Counted from the first letter of the stretch, positions 28,288 through 37,728 are shown. The stretch is DNA of 38,285 nucleotides from a bacterium (GCA_030429345.1 JAUIFJ010000031.1:1-38285); one strand, 5' to 3'. Notes: generated by a model not told the origin, from the sequence alone. Numbers and translations are program-made.

Positions 28288-29544
28288 ATGACCGCCGAGA
28301 CCCTTGCCCGCCTGATCCTCGTCCTGCTTTGCGCCGAGTTCCTGCTCGAGCGCCTGGCGGCCCTGCTCACCGAACGTCGCCGCCACCGGCCCATGCCGGA
28401 AGAGTTCCGCGACCGGATCACGGAGGAAGAGTACGACAAGTCGCGTCGCTACGGGAGCGCGCGCCACGGCCTGGGTCGCCTGCGCGCCGTGGTCAGCCTG
28501 GCGGCGCTTCTGCTCTTCTGGCAGTGGGGCGGCTTTCCCTGGCTGCAGGAGACCGTTGCGGGCATCAGCAGTCACTGGCTTTGGCAGGGGCTGCTCTTTC
28601 TCGGCCTGCTCAGCCTGGGGCAGCAGGTCCTCGACCTGCCCTTCGACCTGGTTCAGACCTTCCGCATCGACCAGCGTTTCGGCATGAACACCACGACGGC
28701 GGCAACCTTCCTTTCCGACCGGCTGAAAGGCCTGCTGCTGATGCTGCTCATCGGGGCGCCCGTGCTGGGCGGCGTGCTGGCCTGCTTCCGCCTGCTGGGA
28801 GAGTCCGCCTGGCTCTGGGGCTGGCTGGTGCTGGGCAGCTTCACTTTGCTGCTGGCCTATGTGGCTCCGACCTGGATCCTGCCGCTTTTCAACCGCTTCG
28901 AGCCCCTGCCCGATGGCGAGCTGCGCAGCTCGCTGCTCGAACTGGCCCGCGAAGCCGGCTTTCCGGTCTCGGAGATCCTGGTCGCCGACGGCAGCCGGCG
29001 CAGCCGCATGTCCAACGCCTATCTCGCCGGCTTCGGCGCGCGCCGCAGGATCGTGCTCTACGACACCCTGCTCGACAGCCAGGGACACGAGGAGATCCGC
29101 AGCGTGCTGGCCCACGAACTGGGGCACTTCCGGCTGGGACACATCCGGCAGCGGCTGCTGCTCTCGCTGGGCAGCATGGGCCTGCTGCTCTACCTCTTCT
29201 CACTCGGCGTGAGCCACCCGACGCTGGCCGCCGCCTTCGGCATGAACGATGCCCAGCTGCACGCCGGCTTCGCCTTCTGCATGATCCTCTTCGGTCCGGT
29301 GAACCTGCTGCTCGGCGTGATCCAGAACGCCGTCTCACGGCGTCACGAGTACCAGGCCGACGCCTTTGCCGCCGGGCTGATCCGCAACGGGGACACGCTG
29401 GTCTCGGCGCTGAAGACCCTCTACCGGGAGAACCTGGCCACGCTGGACCTGCACCCGCTGGCGGAAGTGCTCCATGCCGATCATCCCGCCGCGCTGAACC
29501 GCATTCGCGCCCTGCGGGCCGTGGACGCTCAGGCCCAGGCGTAG
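28288..29544 (+). CDS. M48-family (Ste24/CAAX-prenyl-protease-1-like) membrane metallopeptidase
   Basis: A 418-residue integral membrane protease. Helices lie near residues 5-20, 72-90, 98-115, 150-175, 180-205 and after the catalytic core (about 290-310, 325-345). The zinc site is HELGH (His276, Glu277, His280), and the third ligand is Glu354 in RRHEYQADAFA. The order of helices and the LFNRFEPLPDGELR segment fit the Ste24 group, not the shorter HtpX heat-shock group. In bacteria such enzymes degrade or process damaged membrane proteins. The ATG at 28288 follows CAGGGA. Its last 16 bases overlap, tail to tail, the cyclase gene on the other strand. Confidence 0.9.
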   Translation: MTAETLARLILVLLCAEFLLERLAALLTERRRHRPMPEEFRDRITEEEYDKSRRYGSARHGLGRLRAVVSLAALLLFWQWGGFPWLQETVAGISSHWLWQGLLFLGLLSLGQQVLDLPFDLVQTFRIDQRFGMNTTTAATFLSDRLKGLLLMLLIGAPVLGGVLACFRLLGESAWLWGWLVLGSFTLLLAYVAPTWILPLFNRFEPLPDGELRSSLLELAREAGFPVSEILVADGSRRSRMSNAYLAGFGARRRIVLYDTLLDSQGHEEIRSVLAHELGHFRLGHIRQRLLLSLGSMGLLLYLFSLGVSHPTLAAAFGMNDAQLHAGFAFCMILFGPVNLLLGVIQNAVSRRHEYQADAFAAGLIRNGDTLVSALKTLYRENLATLDLHPLAEVLHADHPAALNRIRALRAVDAQAQA

Positions 29545-30140
29545 ACGCGCGCCGGAGCGGCTTCCACTCCCCGCAGGGGCAAAGGCGCCACCAGCAGCTC
29601 GACGAGCCCGGGCAGATCGTTCAGCCCGACCAGGTTCTCCACCAGCGGAACCCCCGCGCCGAGCAGCAGGTGATGCACGGGCCAGGGGGCGCGGTCCGGA
29701 GAGCAGGTATCCATGCCGAGCAGGAGCATTCCCTTGTCCAGCAGGTGCCGCGCCGCCTCCACGGTGAGCACGGGATGCCGCTTCCAGTAGGCCTCGCTGC
29801 CGTACTCCATGGATGCGCCCGTTGCCAGCAGGACACGGGGCGCCGGAAGGCTTTCCGGAAGATCTTCCGGACGGATCACCTTGCGGCCGCCAAGCTGGAT
29901 CACACAGGCCGGCCCGTGGAGCCTTTCAGCGTCCAGCTCCTCCATGCACGCCCCTGCGGGCAGCATGTGCGCCGGAGCGTCGACATGGGTGCCCCAGTGC
30001 AGGGAGCAGGACAGGGTCCCGACGCGCGCCCCGTCGCCGGACAGGGTGTATACATCCTCGAGGGAGGGGGCCGGATCCCCGGGAAGGGGCGGGGTCCTCG
30101 CGTCCAGGGGCAGGCTCAGGTCGTGCCGGCGGCCCTTCAA
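29529..30140 (-). CDS. cyclase-family metal hydrolase (KynB-like)
   Basis: A 203-residue protein of the cyclase (arylformamidase-like) family. The metal motif is HWGTHVDAPAHM (about residues 49-60), the variant of HxGTHxDxPxH. Later parts, RVLLATGASMEYGSEAYW and DTCSPDRAPWPVHHLLLGAGVPLVENLVGL, are also typical. The family contains formamidases and cyclases, and many members are unassigned. The start is the TTG at 30140: GGAG lies eight bases upstream and the TTGA overlaps the stop of the SRPBCC gene. The end overlaps the M48 gene on the other strand by 16 bases. It is the last gene of the poly-gamma-glutamate operon, which may be chance or a processing role. Confidence 0.78.
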   Translation of the reverse strand: MKGRRHDLSLPLDARTPPLPGDPAPSLEDVYTLSGDGARVGTLSCSLHWGTHVDAPAHMLPAGACMEELDAERLHGPACVIQLGGRKVIRPEDLPESLPAPRVLLATGASMEYGSEAYWKRHPVLTVEAARHLLDKGMLLLGMDTCSPDRAPWPVHHLLLGAGVPLVENLVGLNDLPGLVELLVAPLPLRGVEAAPARVYAWA

Positions 30141-30724
30141 GGCAGGAGCTCCACCACCTCCGCCTGCAGGCCCAGTCCTGCGATCAGCTGCTCGAGGCGC
30201 AGGCGGATCTGCGAGTCGTAGCCGGCCACGCGGGAGAAGTAGAAGCGCAGGGTGGTGCTTCCAATGCGGCCTTCCTCGCTCAAGGTGACACGGCAACCGC
30301 GGGAGGTGGATTCGAGCTCCCAGGTCCAGAGCGTTTCCAGGGGAAAGTCGGGAGTAATGTTGCGCACCTTCCACAGGCGGCCGGGCTGCTGCTGCTCCAC
30401 GCGGAAACGCATGCCCTCGCGGTCGTCCAGGAATTCGCGGTAGACGATGCCGCTGCTGTCGCGGCTCATGACCTGGACCAGGGTGATCTCCGGCCGCCAG
30501 GCGGGCCGGCCGCGCAGGTCGGCGAGCATCTTCCAGACGCTGTCCGCGGGGACCGGAAGTTCCGCCCGTACACGAGCATGATGCTCGGCGGGTTCAAGGG
30601 CGCCGAGAAGGTATACGCCGAAGAGGCCGCCGCAGAAGACCACCAGCATGCCCAGGAAGAGCACCTTGACGACCAGGGAAGAGCGGCGACGGTCCACGGC
30701 GGAGCGCCGGGGCGGGGTGTCCAC
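30137..30724 (-). CDS. membrane-anchored SRPBCC (START-like) protein
   Basis: A 195-residue protein. The GTG start at 30724 lies in TAGTG with the upstream stop. One transmembrane helix near residues 17-38 (VVKVLFLGMLVVFCGGLFGVY) anchors it, and the rest is an SRPBCC-type domain: LPVPADSVWKMLADLRGRPAWRPEI is the typical first strand and helix, later GCRVTLSEEGRIGSTT and a long C-terminal helix. Such domains form a deep pocket for hydrophobic ligands and appear in cyclases and lipid-binding proteins. No catalytic residues can be assigned. It sits between the beta-barrel and cyclase genes with no gaps. Confidence 0.76.
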   Translation of the reverse strand: MDTPPRRSAVDRRRSSLVVKVLFLGMLVVFCGGLFGVYLLGALEPAEHHARVRAELPVPADSVWKMLADLRGRPAWRPEITLVQVMSRDSSGIVYREFLDDREGMRFRVEQQQPGRLWKVRNITPDFPLETLWTWELESTSRGCRVTLSEEGRIGSTTLRFYFSRVAGYDSQIRLRLEQLIAGLGLQAEVVELLP

Positions 30725-31785
30725 TAGAGCACGGACCAGCGCAGGACCAGGCCCAGGCGGCGGGCGTCGAATTCCTTCAGCCGGCGCATGCTGGGCCAGG
30801 CCGATTCCACGCTGCGCCATTCGCGCTCGAGATAGGGCCGCAGGCTGAGCGCCTTCGTGATCTGCCAGCTCTTGTCCAGGCGTAGCACATAGCGGTCGTC
30901 GCTGCGTCCGGAGTGGACCGGATCCTCGAGCAACGGCAGGTCAGTCTGGTATTCGCGGTGGCGCCAGGTGAAGGACAGGCCCAGGCCCAGCTCTTCGCCC
31001 AGCAGGCGGCCCTCCCAGTCCAGGGACAGGCGCCACTGGTCCTCCTGGTTGGTGCCGTCGCCCACTTCGCTGTCCTCGTCGGCCAGGGTGAAGACCGGAG
31101 AACGGTAGCCCACGTTGTCCGTGTCGACGAAGCTGTAGCCCGCGCTGGCCGACAGCCCCAGCGGCAGCGTCGCGCTCAGGCGCAGGCCCCATTCAATCGC
31201 CTCCGTGTCGTACTCGCTGAACCAGGCGTTGTAGTAGGTATTCTGTCCCAGGACGTGCAGGTAGAGCGTGGGACGTGAGACAAGCCCCAGCCCGGGGAAA
31301 CGCATGCGGGCGCGCAGGCGCAGCTCATCGCTGTCGAAATCGGCGCCGCGAATCTGGCCCGTGTCGCCGTCCGTATACTCGCGCAGGTAGAAGTTCCGCA
31401 GGGCGAACCAGCTGGCCTCGATGCCCCAGCCGGGGCGGCGCTGCCAGTCCAGGCTGAAGCGCGCCGTGTGGTAGTTCTTCATGCGGTTGTCGGCGTGCGT
31501 GACCACCTTGGCATCCAGGCCGGCGCGCAGGCGTCCGCTGCGCTTTCCGGGCAGGTCATGGTAGGCGAAGGCGAGCACACGGTGATCCATGCGGAGATCC
31601 TGGGGCCCGGCGGCATCCGGCTGGAAGGAGGGGGTCCCGTCCAGGCGATCGATATCCGGATCCGAAAGACGGAAGACGTTGTCGTCGATCTCCCAGCTCT
31701 CCTCCAGGTCCACGCTGAAGCGGAGGGGAAGGGCCGCCAGTCCGGAAGCCGTCAGCAGCAGGGTCGAAAGAAGCAGCAGGCGCAT
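30724..31785 (-). CDS. outer-membrane beta-barrel protein of the polyglutamate operon
   Basis: A 353-residue exported protein. The signal peptide is about 18 residues (MRLLLLSTLLLTASGLAA). The rest alternates aromatic/polar and hydrophobic residues in short strands: RFSVDLEESWEIDDNVF, HRVLAFAYHDL, ARFSLDWQRRPGWGIEASWF, LRLRARMRF, YNAWFSEYDTEAIEWGLRLSATLPLGLSASAGYSFVDTDNVGY, WRLSLDWEGRLLGEELGLGLSFTWRH, RYVLRLDKSW, and the final RLGLVLRWSVL. This is the pattern of a 12-16-stranded outer-membrane barrel; a putative poly-gamma-glutamate or surface-polymer pore is a guess from context. The ATG at 31785 overlaps the upstream stop as TGATG. Confidence 0.75.
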   Translation of the reverse strand: MRLLLLSTLLLTASGLAALPLRFSVDLEESWEIDDNVFRLSDPDIDRLDGTPSFQPDAAGPQDLRMDHRVLAFAYHDLPGKRSGRLRAGLDAKVVTHADNRMKNYHTARFSLDWQRRPGWGIEASWFALRNFYLREYTDGDTGQIRGADFDSDELRLRARMRFPGLGLVSRPTLYLHVLGQNTYYNAWFSEYDTEAIEWGLRLSATLPLGLSASAGYSFVDTDNVGYRSPVFTLADEDSEVGDGTNQEDQWRLSLDWEGRLLGEELGLGLSFTWRHREYQTDLPLLEDPVHSGRSDDRYVLRLDKSWQITKALSLRPYLEREWRSVESAWPSMRRLKEFDARRLGLVLRWSVL

Positions 31786-32729
31786 CAGCGACCCATCCCG
31801 TGTTCGGTTCCCAGGGCCTCCGGCGGGGCCAGGAAGCGCAGGTTCAGTTCACGCCCCGCTCCGGTGCAGGCGAAGGTGTAGCGGTGCCGTCCCTCGGGCA
31901 CCTCGATGTAGATCACCTCGCCCCGCGAGGGCAGGCTGTCCGGCTTGTCCAGGTAGATGCTGCTGTTGCTGGGGCGTCCCTTGAGCACGTAGCTCTGCTT
32001 CTCGAGCCCGTCCTCGTAGACGCGCAGCGTATACTTCTGCGTGCCGGTCATCGTCTGGTTCCAGTCCAGGCGGCTGATCACCTTGAGGAAGGTCGGCCCC
32101 TCGACTTCCACGCTCAGTTCCCGTTCGCTGGGGAGCACGTTGTAGCTCACCACGGCGTCGCCGGCCTGGATCATGCGCGTCTTCGGGTTGTCCAGCGCCT
32201 GGATGTCCACGTTGCGGCTGCGGTCCATCGGTTCCATCTGCCGCAGGTGGTAGCGCATGTAGGCCACGGTGGTCGGGGAGTCCTTCAGCTGCAGGCGCAC
32301 CAGGTGCTGCCCGGCCGGAATCTCGATCTCGTTGCTGCGTCCCCGTGTGACCTTGCGGTTGTCGGACTTGCGCACGGCGTCCTTTGCCCGGCGGACCGCA
32401 TGGACGAAGTCGCCGCCGTCCGTGTCCTCCATGGTCCAGGAAATGCGGTACTCCTCGTCCTTGTTGCGCTTCGAGTAGGGCACCCGGCTGATCACGCGCA
32501 GGGTGCCCGGCCCTGTGACACGGAGAATCTGTTCTCCCTGCCCCTTCTTCAGGCGGTAGTAGGTGCGCTCCTTGCTGTTGACCAGCACGGGCACCTTGCC
32601 GTCGTGGGCTTCGGGACTGAAGGCGGACCAGAGCCTGCGCGCCGGAAGCGGCAGGGCCAGGGCGAGAGACAGCAGGCCGATCACCAGGAATCGGCCGGCC
32701 GTAGTGCGGGATGTCGATCGGGACAGCAT
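31785..32729 (-). CDS. secreted protein of unknown function in the polyglutamate operon
   Basis: A 314-residue protein with an N-terminal signal (hydrophobic RFLVIGLLSLALALPLPA, residues 13-30) that may be cleaved or serve as an anchor. The mature part seems to hold two similar beta-rich halves: the first with YYRLKKGQGEQILRVTGPGTLRVISRV and EIPAGQHLVRLQLK; the second with SERELSVEVEGPTFLKVISRLDW and VPEGRHRYTFACTG. Each half has a Gly-x-Thr/Phe-Leu-(Arg/Lys)-Val-Ile-Ser-Arg block. I know no family name. It is likely periplasmic and could couple inner-membrane synthesis to the barrel encoded next. Its start lies 12 bases after the pgsW-like stop. Confidence 0.7.
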   Translation of the reverse strand: MLSRSTSRTTAGRFLVIGLLSLALALPLPARRLWSAFSPEAHDGKVPVLVNSKERTYYRLKKGQGEQILRVTGPGTLRVISRVPYSKRNKDEEYRISWTMEDTDGGDFVHAVRRAKDAVRKSDNRKVTRGRSNEIEIPAGQHLVRLQLKDSPTTVAYMRYHLRQMEPMDRSRNVDIQALDNPKTRMIQAGDAVVSYNVLPSERELSVEVEGPTFLKVISRLDWNQTMTGTQKYTLRVYEDGLEKQSYVLKGRPSNSSIYLDKPDSLPSRGEVIYIEVPEGRHRYTFACTGAGRELNLRFLAPPEALGTEHGMGR

Positions 32730-32741
32730 GATGCGTCTTCC

Positions 32742-33866
32742 TTAGAGTATTTCGTCCGAGACGACTTCGGGCTCCCGGAGCTTCTGCGACCGCAGGTCCG
32801 TGCGGATCACGAAGAGCACCAGGATCGTCAGCAGCACCGTCGAGACCAGCACCACCTTCAGGTTGTGCCGCTCGGTGACATAGATGCTGCCTTCGCCGAT
32901 CTTCGGCCGTTCCTTCGGGGAGAGCGGAAGGCCGTAGTCGCGCATGATTTCGGAGAGCTTGAGCAGGTTGATCGTCGGCACACCGCCGTCGGCGAAGAAA
33001 TGCAGCACGCCGCGGTCGGGGAAATCCATCAGTCTCACGTTGCGGGCCACGCCGGAAGGCAGCAGGTCCTTGTTGTCCACATGCCCCAGGCTGGCGACGC
33101 CGCCGCCCACATTGAGGAAGAGGTCATAGCCGCGCGGGGAGTTGCTGATCTCCTGCTGGAAGGCCTCGATGCGCAGGTCGACCGCCTTGCGCAGGTCCGC
33201 CGGATTGAGGAAGGGCACCGCGTTCCGCGTGATCGCCGCGCGCGCCAGCTCCCTTCCTTCGGGGCTCATGCTTTCGCCGCGGTCGTCCGCGCCGCCGATG
33301 GAGGCATAGCTCGAGGTCCATGGAAAGACCCCTTTCTCCTTCAGGGCGGCTTCCATGTCCAGCCAGGTCCAGGAAGGATCGTTGGCGCCGAACCAGCTGC
33401 TGCTGACGCTTGAAATGATCACCGGCTGCAGGTCCAGCACGGCGCAGGCCGAGTAGACGGCTACGTTCAGCCCGGGAAAGGAACCCGTGAGACAGATCGC
33501 CACCCGGTCCCCGTTCTTGACTCCGGCCTCGGCCATCAGCGCGACGACCAGCGCCGCCATGTTGGGATTGAGGCTGTTCTGCTTGCTGCGCAGGTCGCCC
33601 TCGGTCGTGGTGATCTGCGTATACTTCTGGCCGATCAGCAGCGTGTTCCAGGGATCGTTGATGTCGTCGACCAGCACGCCGCCCGGCGCCTGGCTCTCCT
33701 TCAGCGTGCGCAGGGCGCGCTCCATGAGACGCGCAGCGGCCAGCTTGTCGTCGTAGTGGTCCTGCCTGTGATCCACCCGGCTGTTCCACGACCACAGATA
33801 GAGCGCGTAGCTGACCGCCGCCAGCAGCAGGAGCGTCCAGGTCGACTTGAGACTGGGCTTAAACAT
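32742..33866 (-). CDS. poly-gamma-glutamate system protein (PgsW-like)
   Basis: A 374-residue protein that matches the accessory poly-gamma-glutamate system protein of certain bacteria. A first helix lies near residues 10-28 and a second near the C-terminus (VVLVSTVLLTILVLFVIR, about 338-355), so both ends cross the inner membrane with most of the chain outside. The body has QKYTQITTTEGDLRSKQNSLNPNMAAL, GDRVAICLTGSFPGLNVAVYSACAVLDLQPVIISSVSSSWFGAND, TWLDMEAALKEKGVFPW, LFLNVGGGVASLGH and FFADGGVPTINLL; these distinctive blocks support the family call. The role in synthesis or export is unknown in general. It overlaps pgsC by eight bases. Confidence 0.84.
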   Translation of the reverse strand: MFKPSLKSTWTLLLLAAVSYALYLWSWNSRVDHRQDHYDDKLAAARLMERALRTLKESQAPGGVLVDDINDPWNTLLIGQKYTQITTTEGDLRSKQNSLNPNMAALVVALMAEAGVKNGDRVAICLTGSFPGLNVAVYSACAVLDLQPVIISSVSSSWFGANDPSWTWLDMEAALKEKGVFPWTSSYASIGGADDRGESMSPEGRELARAAITRNAVPFLNPADLRKAVDLRIEAFQQEISNSPRGYDLFLNVGGGVASLGHVDNKDLLPSGVARNVRLMDFPDRGVLHFFADGGVPTINLLKLSEIMRDYGLPLSPKERPKIGEGSIYVTERHNLKVVLVSTVLLTILVLFVIRTDLRSQKLREPEVVSDEIL

Positions 33867-34311
33867 GCAGCACCTCCCCGCCGGTGACCAGCATCAGCAG
33901 GATGCGCACGCTGCTCGCCACCAGCAGCAGGCAGAGCAGGGTCTTGAGCACGCCCTGCCGCTCCATCCAGTTGGCGATCAGGCCCGGAATAATGAAGCCG
34001 ACGGCCTGCATCTGCAGGTCGATCTGCAGGAAGTCGTAGACGAAGGCCTGCCGCGAGGCGTAGCCGAGCACGAAGCCGATCAGGATCGACAGCACCAGGC
34101 GCCGCCGGCCGTAGATGAACATGAAGCTCGCCAGGAAGCGGATAATGCCGAAGGTCAGGAAGGACACGACGAAGGTGCCCAGCAGCCTCAGCGGTTCGTG
34201 CATCTGCAGGGCCACGTAGCCGGGCACGACGATGCCGCCCGCGCTCACGCCGACCACCTCCTGGAAGATCATGCTCAGGATGACGCCCAGGCCGACCGCG
34301 ATCTCGATCAC
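33859..34311 (-). CDS. pgsC: poly-gamma-glutamate biosynthesis membrane protein PgsC
   Basis: A 150-residue integral membrane protein that forms the polyglutamate synthase complex with PgsB. The GTG start at 34311 has AGGAG seven bases upstream and overlaps the pgsB stop (GTGA). Diagnostic parts: IEIAVGLGVILSMIFQEVVGVSAGGIVVPGYVAL at the N-terminus (GGIVVPGY is the PgsC/CapC signature), then RRRLVLSILIGFVLGYA, and DLQMQAVGFIIPGLIANWMERQGVLKTL. Four or five helices are expected and are present. Length is typical (about 150). Confidence 0.9.
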   Translation of the reverse strand: MIEIAVGLGVILSMIFQEVVGVSAGGIVVPGYVALQMHEPLRLLGTFVVSFLTFGIIRFLASFMFIYGRRRLVLSILIGFVLGYASRQAFVYDFLQIDLQMQAVGFIIPGLIANWMERQGVLKTLLCLLLVASSVRILLMLVTGGEVLHV

Positions 34312-35474
34312 GTGCGGCTCCTTTCCTGGAAGTAGTGGGCCACTTCGTGGCCGCCCCCGTGCACGTTGCCGATGCCCAGCACCACCAGGTCCTCCCAGGG
34401 CAGCTGGCGCAGCACGTCGTGCACCTTGTCCGCGTCCGACCCGCCCAGGTTCAGCACCTTTTCTGCGGGCAGGCCCATTTTGTAGCACGCGCCCATCAGC
34501 CGGTCGCAACTCTGGCCGATGAGCAGCAGGCGCTCGTAGCGCGTATCCCGATGGACCATCTCCACCAGCTGCACGCTGCGCTCGTAGCGGTCCTGCCGGG
34601 TATTGAGCACGAAGACCGTCACCGCATCGTCGGGGTGGCGGTGGATCACCGTTTCCCAGATGGCCAGCGTGCTCTCCGGATCGTTGGCCGCCAGCGCGTT
34701 GACGAAGGTGATGCGGCGCTCGCCTTCATCAAGGCGGTACATCTTCAGCGCGCCGACGTCCGGGTTCTGGTGATACATTCCCCGCAGGGCCGCTTCGCGA
34801 TCGATGCCGAGCTCGGCGGCGACGCGCAGCGCCAGGGCCACGTTCTCCTTGTGCTCCACGTGGTCGAAGCCTTCCATGTCGTCGTCGCTGATCCCTTCGT
34901 CGGTGATCTGCTCGAGGGCCGTCGAGCGGTCGGCGGCCACGGTGCGCATCAGGTTGAACAGGCGCTTCTCGCAGGTGAAGGCCACCTTGCCGGCCGGCAG
35001 GGTGTTGCACAGGCTGCGGGCCACGTTCTCCACCGTCGGCCCCATCTCCTTCAGGTGATCCGGCCGGGCGTTGGTGATCACGCCGATGGTCGAATGGACG
35101 ATCTTGTGCTCGCAGATCCACTGGTACTCGGGCTGGACGGCCATGCACTCGATGACAATGGCTTCCGGCTTCCGCCTGGCGACGAAGGCGAAGACCTTCA
35201 GCTGCTCGATGATGTTGGCGCCGCGGGGCCGGATGATCGGCACCTCCCGCCCGTCCTCCAGGATCACGCGGGGCGCGCTGCCGGTGGTCTTGGCCACGGT
35301 GCGGATCCCGCCCTCGCGCAGCGCGCCGGCGATCAGCCGGGTGACGCTGGACTTGCCCCGTGTCCCGTTCACATGGATGCGGACCGGGATCGAGAGAGCG
35401 TTCCGGGTGTGCCTCTGCAGTTCGAGCACACCCAGGACGATGAAGAGAACGACCAGGAAGGTGATGGCAATCAT
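34308..35474 (-). CDS. pgsB: poly-gamma-glutamate synthase PgsB (CapB)
   Basis: A 388-residue ATP-dependent amide ligase, related to Mur ligases, that adds glutamate through the gamma-carboxyl group to a growing chain. One membrane helix lies at the N-terminus (ITFLVVLFIVLGVLEL, residues 4-19). The P-loop is VNGTRGKSSVTRLI (NGTRGKSS at residues 36-43). Then come PRGANIIEQLKVFAFV, IVIECMAVQPEYQWICEHKI, the magnesium/glutamate site region VITNARPDHLKEMGPTVENVA, and late FVLNTRQDRYERSVQL and NVHGGGHEVAHYF. The order and length match CapB/PgsB. The ATG at 35474 was preferred; the frame is open further upstream, but that stretch is non-coding in character. First gene of the seven-gene operon. Confidence 0.93.
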   Translation of the reverse strand: MIAITFLVVLFIVLGVLELQRHTRNALSIPVRIHVNGTRGKSSVTRLIAGALREGGIRTVAKTTGSAPRVILEDGREVPIIRPRGANIIEQLKVFAFVARRKPEAIVIECMAVQPEYQWICEHKIVHSTIGVITNARPDHLKEMGPTVENVARSLCNTLPAGKVAFTCEKRLFNLMRTVAADRSTALEQITDEGISDDDMEGFDHVEHKENVALALRVAAELGIDREAALRGMYHQNPDVGALKMYRLDEGERRITFVNALAANDPESTLAIWETVIHRHPDDAVTVFVLNTRQDRYERSVQLVEMVHRDTRYERLLLIGQSCDRLMGACYKMGLPAEKVLNLGGSDADKVHDVLRQLPWEDLVVLGIGNVHGGGHEVAHYFQERSRT

Positions 35475-35934
35475 TGACCGATCCGGACCACGGGTACAAG
35501 CGATGTTCACGGGCCACCGAACGCCGCGAACGCATGCCCTTCGCGGACGGTCGGGCCGTCGTTGGACTGCGGAATGCGAAAGACTTCGGAACCCTGGTTC
35601 CACCGGGGAACAAGTGGCTGGAACTTGCATTTTTCACGCCAGCTTGACCCGTCCCCGGCCCAGGAGGAGGAAATTCGGGAAATCATCCAGCATTACCAAT
35701 GCCAGGGCGGATTTGCGTGGCTCAAGGCTTTGCGCTTTGCCGCGTCCGGGCAGCAAAGCTTCCCCGAGGGGCGCGATGCCGGGGAAGGAAAGCTGGCTTC
35801 TGTCTGGAAAACCTCTCAGCAGGAAGCTCCGATTTACGCGATTCTTCCGCTTGCCGCGGCTTTGGCCGGCTAAGTCTTCAACCTGCGTTCGCGCGCCAAT
35901 GGCATTTGTTTTGCTGGTTGTACCTTTTTACCTG
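35475..35934. other. hairpin-rich divergent intergenic region
   Basis: This 460-base gap separates pgsB (leftward) from the secreted protein at 35935 (rightward), so it should hold both promoters and both leaders. A 103-codon plus-strand frame (35562-35873) crosses it, but I judge it spurious. The central part is unusually rich in inverted repeats: a five-base stem at 35690-35702, a seven- to ten-base stem at 35734-35759 and a seven-base stem at 35760-35786. A CAAGTTCCAGCCACT-type AT/GC-mixed part lies nearer to pgsB. I recognise no known riboswitch. Confidence 0.6.
35734..35786. promoter_or_regulatory. two adjacent hairpins in the pgsB/secreted-protein intergenic gap
   Basis: GCTTTGC (35734-35740) pairs with GCAAAGC (35753-35759); on the minus strand the loop adds a U-G and two further pairs, leaving a six-base CCGGAC loop. 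Directly next, TTCCCCG (35760-35766) pairs with CGGGGAA (35780-35786). On the minus strand they would lie in the pgsB leader, on the plus strand in the secreted-protein leader. No T-run follows either, so they are more likely regulatory or RNA-stabilising structures than terminators. Confidence 0.45.
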
Positions 35935-37728
35935 ATGACGCTTCTGCCCATTTCATTCCGCCGCCTGGTCGGCCTGCTGGCGCTGCTGCCGTTGCTTGCG
36001 GGGCAGGCCCGCGTGCTACTGGAATCCGAGGGCCTGCTTCTGCCGCCCGGCGACCCGGACCCTTCTCGGGAAACCCGGGACGCCCTTTGCTATCACGACT
36101 GGGCCTACTACTACATCAAGATTCCGCACCCTTCCTGGGGCCATGTGGGAAGGATCTACCAACGCATCCTGCCGGTGGATGCCGGCGAGGTCACGCAGCT
36201 CGAACTGCGACTGCACAATGACTACCTGGAGGGCAATGCCCACCAGGGCCAGATCCAGCTTGGCCTGCACAGGGTGGACGGACAGTGGCCGCAGCCCGCC
36301 AGCGTCTCCTGGGCGATCGAAAGCGATACGCTGGGCAATGGGGTGTTCCATTTCGATCTGCCGGGACCGCCATTTTCCTTCCAGACGGGCGAGGAGTTCC
36401 TGCTTTCCATGGACTACCTGCCCGCCAGTCCGCAGGACACCATTGCCATTGTCACCGGCAGCGCCGGCACCTGGACGGGGCACAGCTTCTTCCTGGGCGG
36501 CAACGAGTACCAGTGGTGGGGCAACCATGAGGGCGAAGCCTTCGGAGACATGCACTTCTGCGCGGAGGTGACCTGGATGAACGGCGCTCAGGCCCATGCC
36601 TGGATGCCGGCGCAGGAACTGGATCTGGGACTCTTCGCCCCCGGCGAGCAGAAGGAACTGCGTCTTCCGATCCTCAACCTCGGCACGGCGCCCCTGGGCA
36701 CTTCCGCCCCCAGCAGCAGCCACATGCGGCATGTGGCCAGCCTGGAGGGACCGGATTCCCTGCTGAACCCGGACACTCTCTTCCTGGATGTGCTGACACG
36801 CGCTCCTCAAAGCTGGGTCGGCAATCCGCAGCTCAGCGCGCGGATCGAGATGCGGACCAACATGCCCATGGACAGCCTGCTCAGTCTGCGACTGCATTCC
36901 AGCCTGAGCAGCAGCGATCTGCTGCTCAACGACTGGGACGAGTGGATCGGGGCCGACTGGAGTCTGAGCTTCTCCCAGTTCGCCGATACGGGAGCGACGG
37001 TCGCCAACTGGGGCTTCTACGAGGGCCTGGGCCGGCCGGCGACCTTCATCGGGCACGAAGCCAGCCAGCCCGCGGATTCCAGCGCCAGCATCCTTGCTCT
37101 GCGCGAGCTGCCGCTGCAGGCGGGCGAGCATGTCTCCCTTCGCTGGGCACAGCTGGAACGGCGACGGGCGGCCGGCGGCCTGCATGCCCTGGTCTGGCGC
37201 AATCCGCTGGACAGCTTCTGGTATGTGCAAGCCGTGGAGCTTGACAGCCTGCCCTACCAGGGACCGGAGAACACCTGGCACACGATTCCCTGGATTCACT
37301 GGGGCCCCGCGCCGAACAGCGGTCTGCATGGATTCGGACTGTTGTATGTGGGGCGCGACGCCAACGAGTGGTTCGTGGACGATCTGGAGCTCGAGTTCTG
37401 GACAGAGATGGAAGCGCCCCGCCTGCGCATCGATACCTACGGACCGGACATCCTCCTGGAATGGGACGACATTCCCGCCGCGGAGAATTATCGCGTCCTC
37501 CGCATGCGCGACGGGGAGTCCCGGGAAGTGGCCATGACGTCCGGCACCTCGTATACCGATGAGCGCGCCCTGCAGCAGGTAGGCTTCACGGCCTACCGGG
37601 TCGTGTCGGAGACCATGCCCCCTGCCGCCGAAACATGCATCCCTTCGGCGGATCATCCCGTGGCTGGCCGCGAAGCCTCTCGCCCGCTGGAAGCAACTGC
37701 ACCGAAACAGCCGAGAAGTCTCCGGTGA
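35935..37728 (+). CDS. large secreted protein with C-terminal FN3-like domain, unknown function
   Basis: A 597-residue exported protein from the ATG at 35935 (signal peptide with FRRLVGLLALLPLLAGQA). An ATG 36 bases earlier would add a second hydrophobic run; neither has a visible ribosome site. The first 200 mature residues look like a carbohydrate-binding or jelly-roll module (VTQLELRLHNDYLEGNAHQG, FHFDLPGPPFSFQTGEEFLLSMDYLPAS). A middle beta-rich part (about 225-410) has repeated Leu/Pro-rich strands, then WNFYEGLGR-like and LLYVGRDANEWFVDDLELEFW pieces. The last 70 residues resemble a fibronectin type III module (ILLEWDDIPAAENYRVLRM). There is no FlgD-like sorting tail. The stop overlaps the next GTG start. 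Confidence 0.68.
   Translation: MTLLPISFRRLVGLLALLPLLAGQARVLLESEGLLLPPGDPDPSRETRDALCYHDWAYYYIKIPHPSWGHVGRIYQRILPVDAGEVTQLELRLHNDYLEGNAHQGQIQLGLHRVDGQWPQPASVSWAIESDTLGNGVFHFDLPGPPFSFQTGEEFLLSMDYLPASPQDTIAIVTGSAGTWTGHSFFLGGNEYQWWGNHEGEAFGDMHFCAEVTWMNGAQAHAWMPAQELDLGLFAPGEQKELRLPILNLGTAPLGTSAPSSSHMRHVASLEGPDSLLNPDTLFLDVLTRAPQSWVGNPQLSARIEMRTNMPMDSLLSLRLHSSLSSSDLLLNDWDEWIGADWSLSFSQFADTGATVANWGFYEGLGRPATFIGHEASQPADSSASILALRELPLQAGEHVSLRWAQLERRRAAGGLHALVWRNPLDSFWYVQAVELDSLPYQGPENTWHTIPWIHWGPAPNSGLHGFGLLYVGRDANEWFVDDLELEFWTEMEAPRLRIDTYGPDILLEWDDIPAAENYRVLRMRDGESREVAMTSGTSYTDERALQQVGFTAYRVVSETMPPAAETCIPSADHPVAGREASRPLEATAPKQPRSLR

What the first reader, a model, noticed from the sequence alone, without database searches (positions are those of the whole stretch)
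29529..35474. Seven-gene poly-gamma-glutamate operon with an outer-membrane barrel, a two-domain secreted protein and two appended enzymes
pgsB, pgsC and a PgsW-like gene are followed without gaps by a secreted protein with two similar beta-rich halves, a predicted outer-membrane barrel, a membrane-anchored SRPBCC protein and a cyclase-family enzyme. Junctions are GTGA, an 8-base overlap, 12 bases, TGATG, TAGTG and TTGA. The Gram-positive route (PgsA/CapA, CapD/PgdS) is absent, and a barrel would solve the extra-membrane problem in a diderm. This suggests an export or anchoring route for polyglutamate or a related polymer. Basis: the motifs and junctions are visible; the link between polymer and barrel is inference.
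Basis: partly seen in the sequence, partly recalled or inferred. Interest (0 to 1): 0.68.

Follow-up and report, generated by a model that had tools for sequence, protein, structure and literature searches.

The report
Outer-membrane export operon for polyglutamate
Next to the genes that make the slimy polymer poly-gamma-glutamate, this bacterium carries two extra genes, for a periplasmic two-domain protein and an outer-membrane pore, that travel with those genes across about 20 bacterial families; they are probably the missing route by which bacteria with two membranes get the polymer out of the cell.

Summary
The seven genes and all six junctions exist as described. Five form a conserved unit: pgsB-pgsC-pgsW-S-Bar. 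S is a secreted protein with two homologous beta-jelly-roll domains (model pLDDT 91). Bar is a 14-stranded outer-membrane barrel (pLDDT 91, pTM 0.87). The SRPBCC and cyclase genes are local additions: no relative in the four other genomes of the phylum, nor beside any other pgsW found.

In 386 genomes spread over bacteria, PgsW occurs in 41, S in 28 and Bar in 28. For each of S and Bar, 27 of the 28 genomes also have PgsW; the 28th is a draft whose contig ends at S. The link holds for copies not used to build the profiles (5/5 unlinked S, 10/10 Bar). In four loci the barrel carries an S-type domain. S-linked PgsW is separate in the tree from a second type linked to gamma-glutamyltransferase, which this genome also has. 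CapA is not absent: a long secreted CapA-domain protein is encoded elsewhere.

Best reading: an outer-membrane export arm for poly-gamma-glutamate in diderms, working like BcsB/BcsC or AlgE but not a member of those families. Coupling is shown; translocation and polymer identity are inferred. I found no paper describing it.

The parts
34308..35474 (-). pgsB, poly-gamma-glutamate synthase, Mur-ligase-like with P-loop GTRGKSS, N-terminal membrane anchor
   Evidence: TIGR04012 433.9 bits against a cut-off of 222.7; sequence; hydrophobic segment 1-22. A longer ORF to 35630 exists; ATG at 35474 gives the usual N-terminus.
33859..34311 (-). pgsC, integral inner-membrane subunit (GTG start)
   Evidence: TIGR04011 124.9 bits (cut-off 96.5), PF14102 121.9; 4-base overlap with pgsB
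32742..33866 (-). pgsW, inner-membrane-anchored protein with a large domain taken to be periplasmic
   Evidence: TIGR04332 297.3 bits (cut-off 100); C-terminal hydrophobic segment 333-360, weaker N-terminal one; the S-linked PgsW form one group in the tree, support 100/96
31785..32729 (-). S: secreted protein with signal peptide and two homologous jelly-roll domains (about residues 35-164 and 174-301)
   Evidence: AlphaFold model m258884cd58c5, pLDDT 90.6; halves homologous, E 2.5e-29; homologues directly downstream of pgsW in 22 loci, this one included
30724..31785 (-). Bar: outer-membrane beta-barrel, signal peptide, 14 strands, motifs DDNxxRLS and DPxHxGRxD
   Evidence: AlphaFold model m8f631357d410, pLDDT 91.0, pTM 0.87; fold matches OmpG, CymA, PgaA, AlgE, BcsC; directly after S in 17 loci, this one included
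30137..30724 (-). membrane-anchored SRPBCC (Polyketide_cyc2) protein, GTG start; in the gene run but not part of the conserved system
   Evidence: PF10604 38.8 bits; hydrophobic segment 14-47; no relative in the other 4 genomes of the phylum or near any other pgsW
29529..30140 (-). cyclase/kynurenine-formamidase-like protein (PF04199), TTG start; in the gene run but not part of the conserved system
   Evidence: PF04199 81.3 bits; arylformamidase TIGR03035 81.7, below its cut-off of 223; no relative in the other 4 genomes or near any other pgsW

Best explanation
pgsB-pgsC-pgsW-S-Bar is a five-gene system of bacteria with an outer membrane that makes poly-gamma-glutamate and passes it through the envelope. 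PgsB and PgsC make and extrude the chain at the inner membrane (established for PgsBC/CapBC elsewhere; here from family membership). PgsW, anchored in the inner membrane, stands in the operon position of PgsA/CapA and receives or guides the chain (inferred). S, two jelly-roll domains in the periplasm, holds or guides the chain towards the barrel, as the carbohydrate-binding-like domains of BcsB do for cellulose (inferred). Bar, a 14-stranded barrel with a net-positive predicted lumen, is the exit pore (barrel shown by prediction, transport inferred). A long secreted CapA-domain protein encoded elsewhere in the genome may act at the cell surface (weakly inferred). The SRPBCC and cyclase genes were added in this genome and are not part of the machine.
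For: Synteny: S is the next gene after pgsW in 22 loci and Bar follows S in 17, most junctions within 50 bases or overlapping. Co-occurrence over 386 genomes: PgsW in 41, S strong in 28, Bar strong in 28; 27 of 28 each with PgsW, Fisher p about 4e-30 each, S with Bar 26 of 28, 20 family labels each. The one exception, G001, has pgsB, but its contig ends at S. Test free of seed bias: S copies unlinked to pgsW, 5 of 5 in PgsW genomes (P 2e-7); Bar hits not used to build the profile, 10 of 10 (P 2e-13). Fusions: in four loci the barrel carries an N-terminal S-type domain, 99.4%, E 7e-22. All 42 genomes examined have Omp85, so all are diderm, and all have a PgsB match, 39 over the cut-off. Tree: S-linked PgsW one group, 100/96. 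Models; fold matches include BcsB for S and PgaA, AlgE, BcsC for Bar. Predicted lumen net charge positive in 18 of 18 barrels (+1 to +17) although whole-protein charge varies from -25 to +11.
Against: No experiment. 14 of 41 PgsW genomes lack S (and 14 lack Bar), so PgsW can work without them. The PDB fold matches are generic: TM about 0.22-0.27 for S, 0.4-0.56 for Bar, whose nearest are diffusion porins (OmpG, CymA). The lumen-charge estimate comes from strand alternation, not coordinates, and has no control set. In at least five genomes S and Bar lie far from pgsBCW and sometimes from each other. The S and Bar profiles were seeded from pgsW neighbours, so remote relatives elsewhere could be missed.
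Confidence: 0.68

Rival explanations
1. S and Bar retain or anchor the polymer at the outer membrane (capsule attachment) rather than forming the exit pore; the polymer leaves by another route.
For: S resembles tandem carbohydrate-binding domains in fold; LVIVD beta-propeller lipoproteins often follow Bar, which suits a surface assembly; Bar's closest fold matches are ordinary porins.
Against: No other outer-membrane candidate is conserved in these loci; S with a signal peptide, followed by a polar net-positive barrel, matches periplasm-to-pore layouts.
Confidence: 0.14
2. The system exports a different anionic polymer made by a PgsB/PgsC-type synthetase, not poly-gamma-glutamate.
For: The polymer cannot be read from sequence; capBCA of Francisella, whose CapA is annotated as a poly-gamma-glutamate system protein (PMC5362203), has been reported as not involved in capsule production (PMC4688374).
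Against: PgsB scores 434 bits, about twice the equivalog cut-off; PGA is demonstrated in a Gram-negative, Fusobacterium nucleatum (Candela 2009, cited in PMC3815933).
Confidence: 0.1
3. S and Bar serve uptake or recycling of PGA or glutamyl peptides.
For: A second PgsW paralogue in the same genome sits with a gamma-glutamyltransferase, a DctM-like permease and an AstE/AspA hydrolase, a degradation-like set.
Against: S and Bar were never seen in that cassette; they sit with pgsBC, and the two PgsW types are separate in the tree.
Confidence: 0.05
4. The functional unit is the full seven-gene operon, with SRPBCC and cyclase modifying or transporting the polymer.
For: The two genes overlap the preceding ones (TAGTG, TTGA) with no terminator between.
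Against: Neither gene is found near any other pgsW nor anywhere in the four other genomes of the phylum.
Confidence: 0.03

Closest known systems
Bacterial cellulose secretion BcsA-BcsB-BcsC
   Same: Synthase at the inner membrane, periplasmic beta-rich domains that guide the polymer (S gives fold matches to BcsB), outer-membrane barrel exit (Bar gives fold matches to BcsC)
   Different: Peptide-type polymer made by a Mur-ligase-like synthetase, no glycosyltransferase, no TPR scaffold on the barrel, 14 predicted strands, no detectable sequence relation
EpsL (TIGR03014), XrtB/PEP-CTERM-associated polysaccharide outer-membrane protein
   Same: Only curated family with a sequence match that makes sense (4 of 18 Bar members, best E 2.1e-6); outer-membrane protein of polymer synthesis
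   Different: 20 bits against a cut-off of 275; S and PgsW beside it instead of exopolysaccharide genes
AlgE (alginate) and PgaA (PNAG) exporters
   Same: Single barrel exits for polymers; fold matches 5d5d and 4y25; AlgE also passes an anionic polymer through a positive lumen (own knowledge)
   Different: Different strand number and no sequence similarity found
PgsBCA / CapBCAD of Gram-positive bacteria
   Same: PgsB and PgsC are members of the curated families
   Different: pgsA/capA replaced by pgsW in the operon, two outer-membrane-route genes added; the CapA-domain protein is a separate long secreted protein encoded elsewhere
Fusobacterial pgsBCW cassette (Cetobacterium somerae plasmid NZ_CP143320)
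   Same: pgsB-pgsC-pgsW in a diderm
   Different: Linked to ggt, DUF6305, a TRAP-type permease and succinylglutamate desuccinylase, not to S and Bar; its PgsW falls on the other side of the tree

Membership tests
PgsB (TIGR04012) | Score above curated cut-off over the full length | tested here: met
   433.9 bits, cut-off 222.7, profile 2-380 of 380
PgsC (TIGR04011) | Score above curated cut-off | tested here: met
   124.9 bits, cut-off 96.45
PgsW (TIGR04332) | Score above curated cut-off, next to pgsBC | tested here: met
   297.3 bits, cut-off 100; 8-base overlap with pgsC
Gram-positive PgsBCA/CapBCA synthetase | PgsA/CapA (PF09587) gene in the operon | tested here: not met
   No PF09587 match among the seven proteins; CapA-domain proteins on another contig, C8
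EpsL (TIGR03014) | Score above curated cut-off | tested here: not met
   20.4 bits, cut-off 275
Bcs cellulose secretion | BcsA-type glycosyltransferase and TPR-bearing BcsC | tested here: not met
   No such Pfam match in any of the seven proteins
Wza-type outer-membrane polysaccharide export (PF02563) | Poly_export domain | tested here: not met
   No match in S or Bar, all members scanned
Outer-membrane beta-barrel | Signal peptide and closed barrel of amphipathic strands | tested here: met
   14 strands, pLDDT 91; amphipathic alternation in all strands; 5 of 18 members match PF13505 OMP_b-brl weakly
Dedicated polymer exporter | Polymer passes through the barrel | not testable with these tools
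   Needs mutants or reconstitution

The most novel reading that the evidence does not exclude
A previously undescribed class of outer-membrane secretion system for a peptide-bonded polymer: PgsB-PgsC-PgsW-S-Bar (plus a long secreted CapA-domain protein in many carriers) is the standard way by which many diderm lineages make and export poly-gamma-glutamate, distinct from the fusobacterial, gamma-glutamyltransferase-linked type.
Probability: 0.6. Interest if true: 0.75.

Novelty: new variant of a known kind. Interest (0 to 1): 0.64.

Why it matters
PGA is well studied in Gram-positives, but in the one Gram-negative where it has been shown (Fusobacterium) and in capBCA carriers such as Francisella, how or whether it crosses the outer membrane is open. 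Two protein families without a name, tightly tied to one PgsW type across about 20 bacterial families, give concrete candidates: a gene deletion and a PGA assay would settle it. It would also add a polyamide to the set of polymers (cellulose, alginate, PNAG) that use a dedicated barrel, and would let genome annotation predict PGA surfaces in many uncultured lineages.

Tried and rejected
SRPBCC and cyclase as part of the system: rejected. 'No CapA or CapD': rejected genome-wide. The plasmid collection held one PgsW, of the other type. S against Pfam gave only scattered weak Ig/E-set matches. The S profile does not match the long CapA proteins. Literature searches for PgsW, pgsC with beta-barrel, and pgsB with outer membrane found no account of this system. 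No solved structure is related to S or Bar by sequence; one weak, compositional hit for PgsW was ignored. A replicate sample through the phylum of G061 failed: only one genome is held there.

Full report
What is there. The window is contig C4 of a 4.2-Mb draft genome in a phylum of which only five genomes are held. PgsB, PgsC and PgsW pass the curated cut-offs of their families. S and Bar have no curated family. A divergent gene lies upstream, so pgsB is first in the run. No promoter- or terminator-like site lies inside.

Which genes belong together. In the sister genomes G003 and G004 the order pgsB-pgsC-pgsW-S-Bar is the same. In G002 the contig ends inside S, and in G001 it ends just before it. 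The SRPBCC and cyclase genes have no relative in those four genomes and none near any other pgsW. The unit is therefore five genes, with two local additions.

Beyond the phylum. A sample of 386 genomes over the bacterial domain has PgsW in 41. I fetched the neighbourhoods. S is the next gene after pgsW in 22 loci and Bar follows S in 17. Profiles of S (22 rows) and Bar (18 rows) were then run against all 386 genomes. S occurs strongly in 28 and Bar in 28; for each, 27 are among the 41 PgsW genomes and the 28th is G001, the broken draft. Fisher's test gives about 4e-30 each, and 26 genomes share S and Bar. A handful of 20-33 bit matches in PgsW-free genomes do not change this. Genomes are not independent, but S and Bar each cover 20 family labels. 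The profiles were seeded from pgsW neighbours, so the fair test is on hits that were not seeds: S unlinked to pgsW, 5 of 5 in PgsW genomes (P 2e-7); Bar, 10 of 10 (P 2e-13). In G108 an S-Bar-LVIVD cluster lies apart from pgsBC. All 42 genomes examined have Omp85 and so an outer membrane; all have a PgsB match, 39 over the cut-off.

S and Bar are partners. In four loci the barrel has an S-type domain at its N-terminus (99.4%, E 7e-22). S itself is a tandem repeat of that domain (99.8%, E 2.5e-29). The S model shows two jelly-roll domains at pLDDT 90.6; its solved-structure matches are tandem CBM22, PNGase and cellulose BcsB, at TM values that support the fold class only. The Bar model is a 14-stranded barrel, pLDDT 91, pTM 0.87, matching OmpG and CymA best and also PgaA, AlgE and BcsC. 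From strand alternation the lumen side is net positive in 18 of 18 members, which would suit an anionic chain; no control set was run.

Two kinds of PgsW. The tree places the S-linked PgsW on one side of a 100/96 branch and those linked to gamma-glutamyltransferase on the other. The second kind is seen in Cetobacterium: ggt-DUF6305-permease-hypothetical-desuccinylase-pgsB-pgsC-pgsW. The window's genome has that cassette too, at C91, without its own pgsBC: ggt, pgsW2, DctM-like permease, small gene, AstE/AspA-like hydrolase.

CapA. PF09587 occurs in 35 of the 42 genomes. In 17 it is part of a protein of about 950 to 1,450 residues (open frame). All 17 have S; none of the 14 PgsW genomes without S has it (p 1.2e-4). 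In the window's genome it is C8:80791-83685 (L153:4792-7686): signal peptide, PGA_cap, CBM_4_9-like domain; others have PKD domains, and one a Por secretion tail. In G001 it lies just upstream of pgsB (L154), in G144 about 2.5 kb downstream of Bar (L051).

Mechanism. Shown: the gene unit, co-occurrence, domain sharing, barrel and jelly-roll folds by prediction. Established for the families: PgsB/PgsC make PGA. Inferred: PgsW and S pass the chain across the periplasm and Bar lets it out. It works like Bcs, Alg and Pga exporters but is not a member of those tested (membership table). Literature searches found no description; PGA in a Gram-negative has been shown for Fusobacterium nucleatum (Candela 2009, cited in PMC3815933), and the role of Francisella capBCA is disputed (PMC4688374).

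Verdict. A real, conserved and apparently undescribed module.

Noticed in passing
G000:C91:39635-45008 (L017:5636-11009): Second cassette in the same genome: gamma-glutamyltransferase, PgsW paralogue, DctM-like permease, small gene, AstE/AspA-like hydrolase; conserved in G002-G004 and, with pgsBC added, in Fusobacteriota. Perhaps PGA or gamma-glutamyl turnover.
   Followed up: partly
G000:C8:80791-83685 (L153:4792-7686): Long secreted CapA-domain protein (964 aa), a family found among PgsW genomes only in those that have S (17 of 28 against 0 of 14).
   Followed up: partly
L056, L062, L063, L071, L074, L078, L079, L174: A lipoprotein-like LVIVD beta-propeller gene often follows Bar; it is not next to Bar in the window.
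   Followed up: partly
L066, L070 (and L068): A PgsW subgroup whose S and Bar lie elsewhere in the genome; in L066 and L070 pgsBCW is followed by other secreted proteins and a large outer-membrane-receptor-like protein.
   Followed up: partly
L057, L059, L061, L075: A PgsW clade in diderms with neither S nor Bar detected anywhere in the genome; either another export route or relatives too remote for the profiles.
   Followed up: no
window 35902-37728 (+): Divergent gene upstream of pgsB encodes a large secreted protein of unknown function.
   Followed up: no
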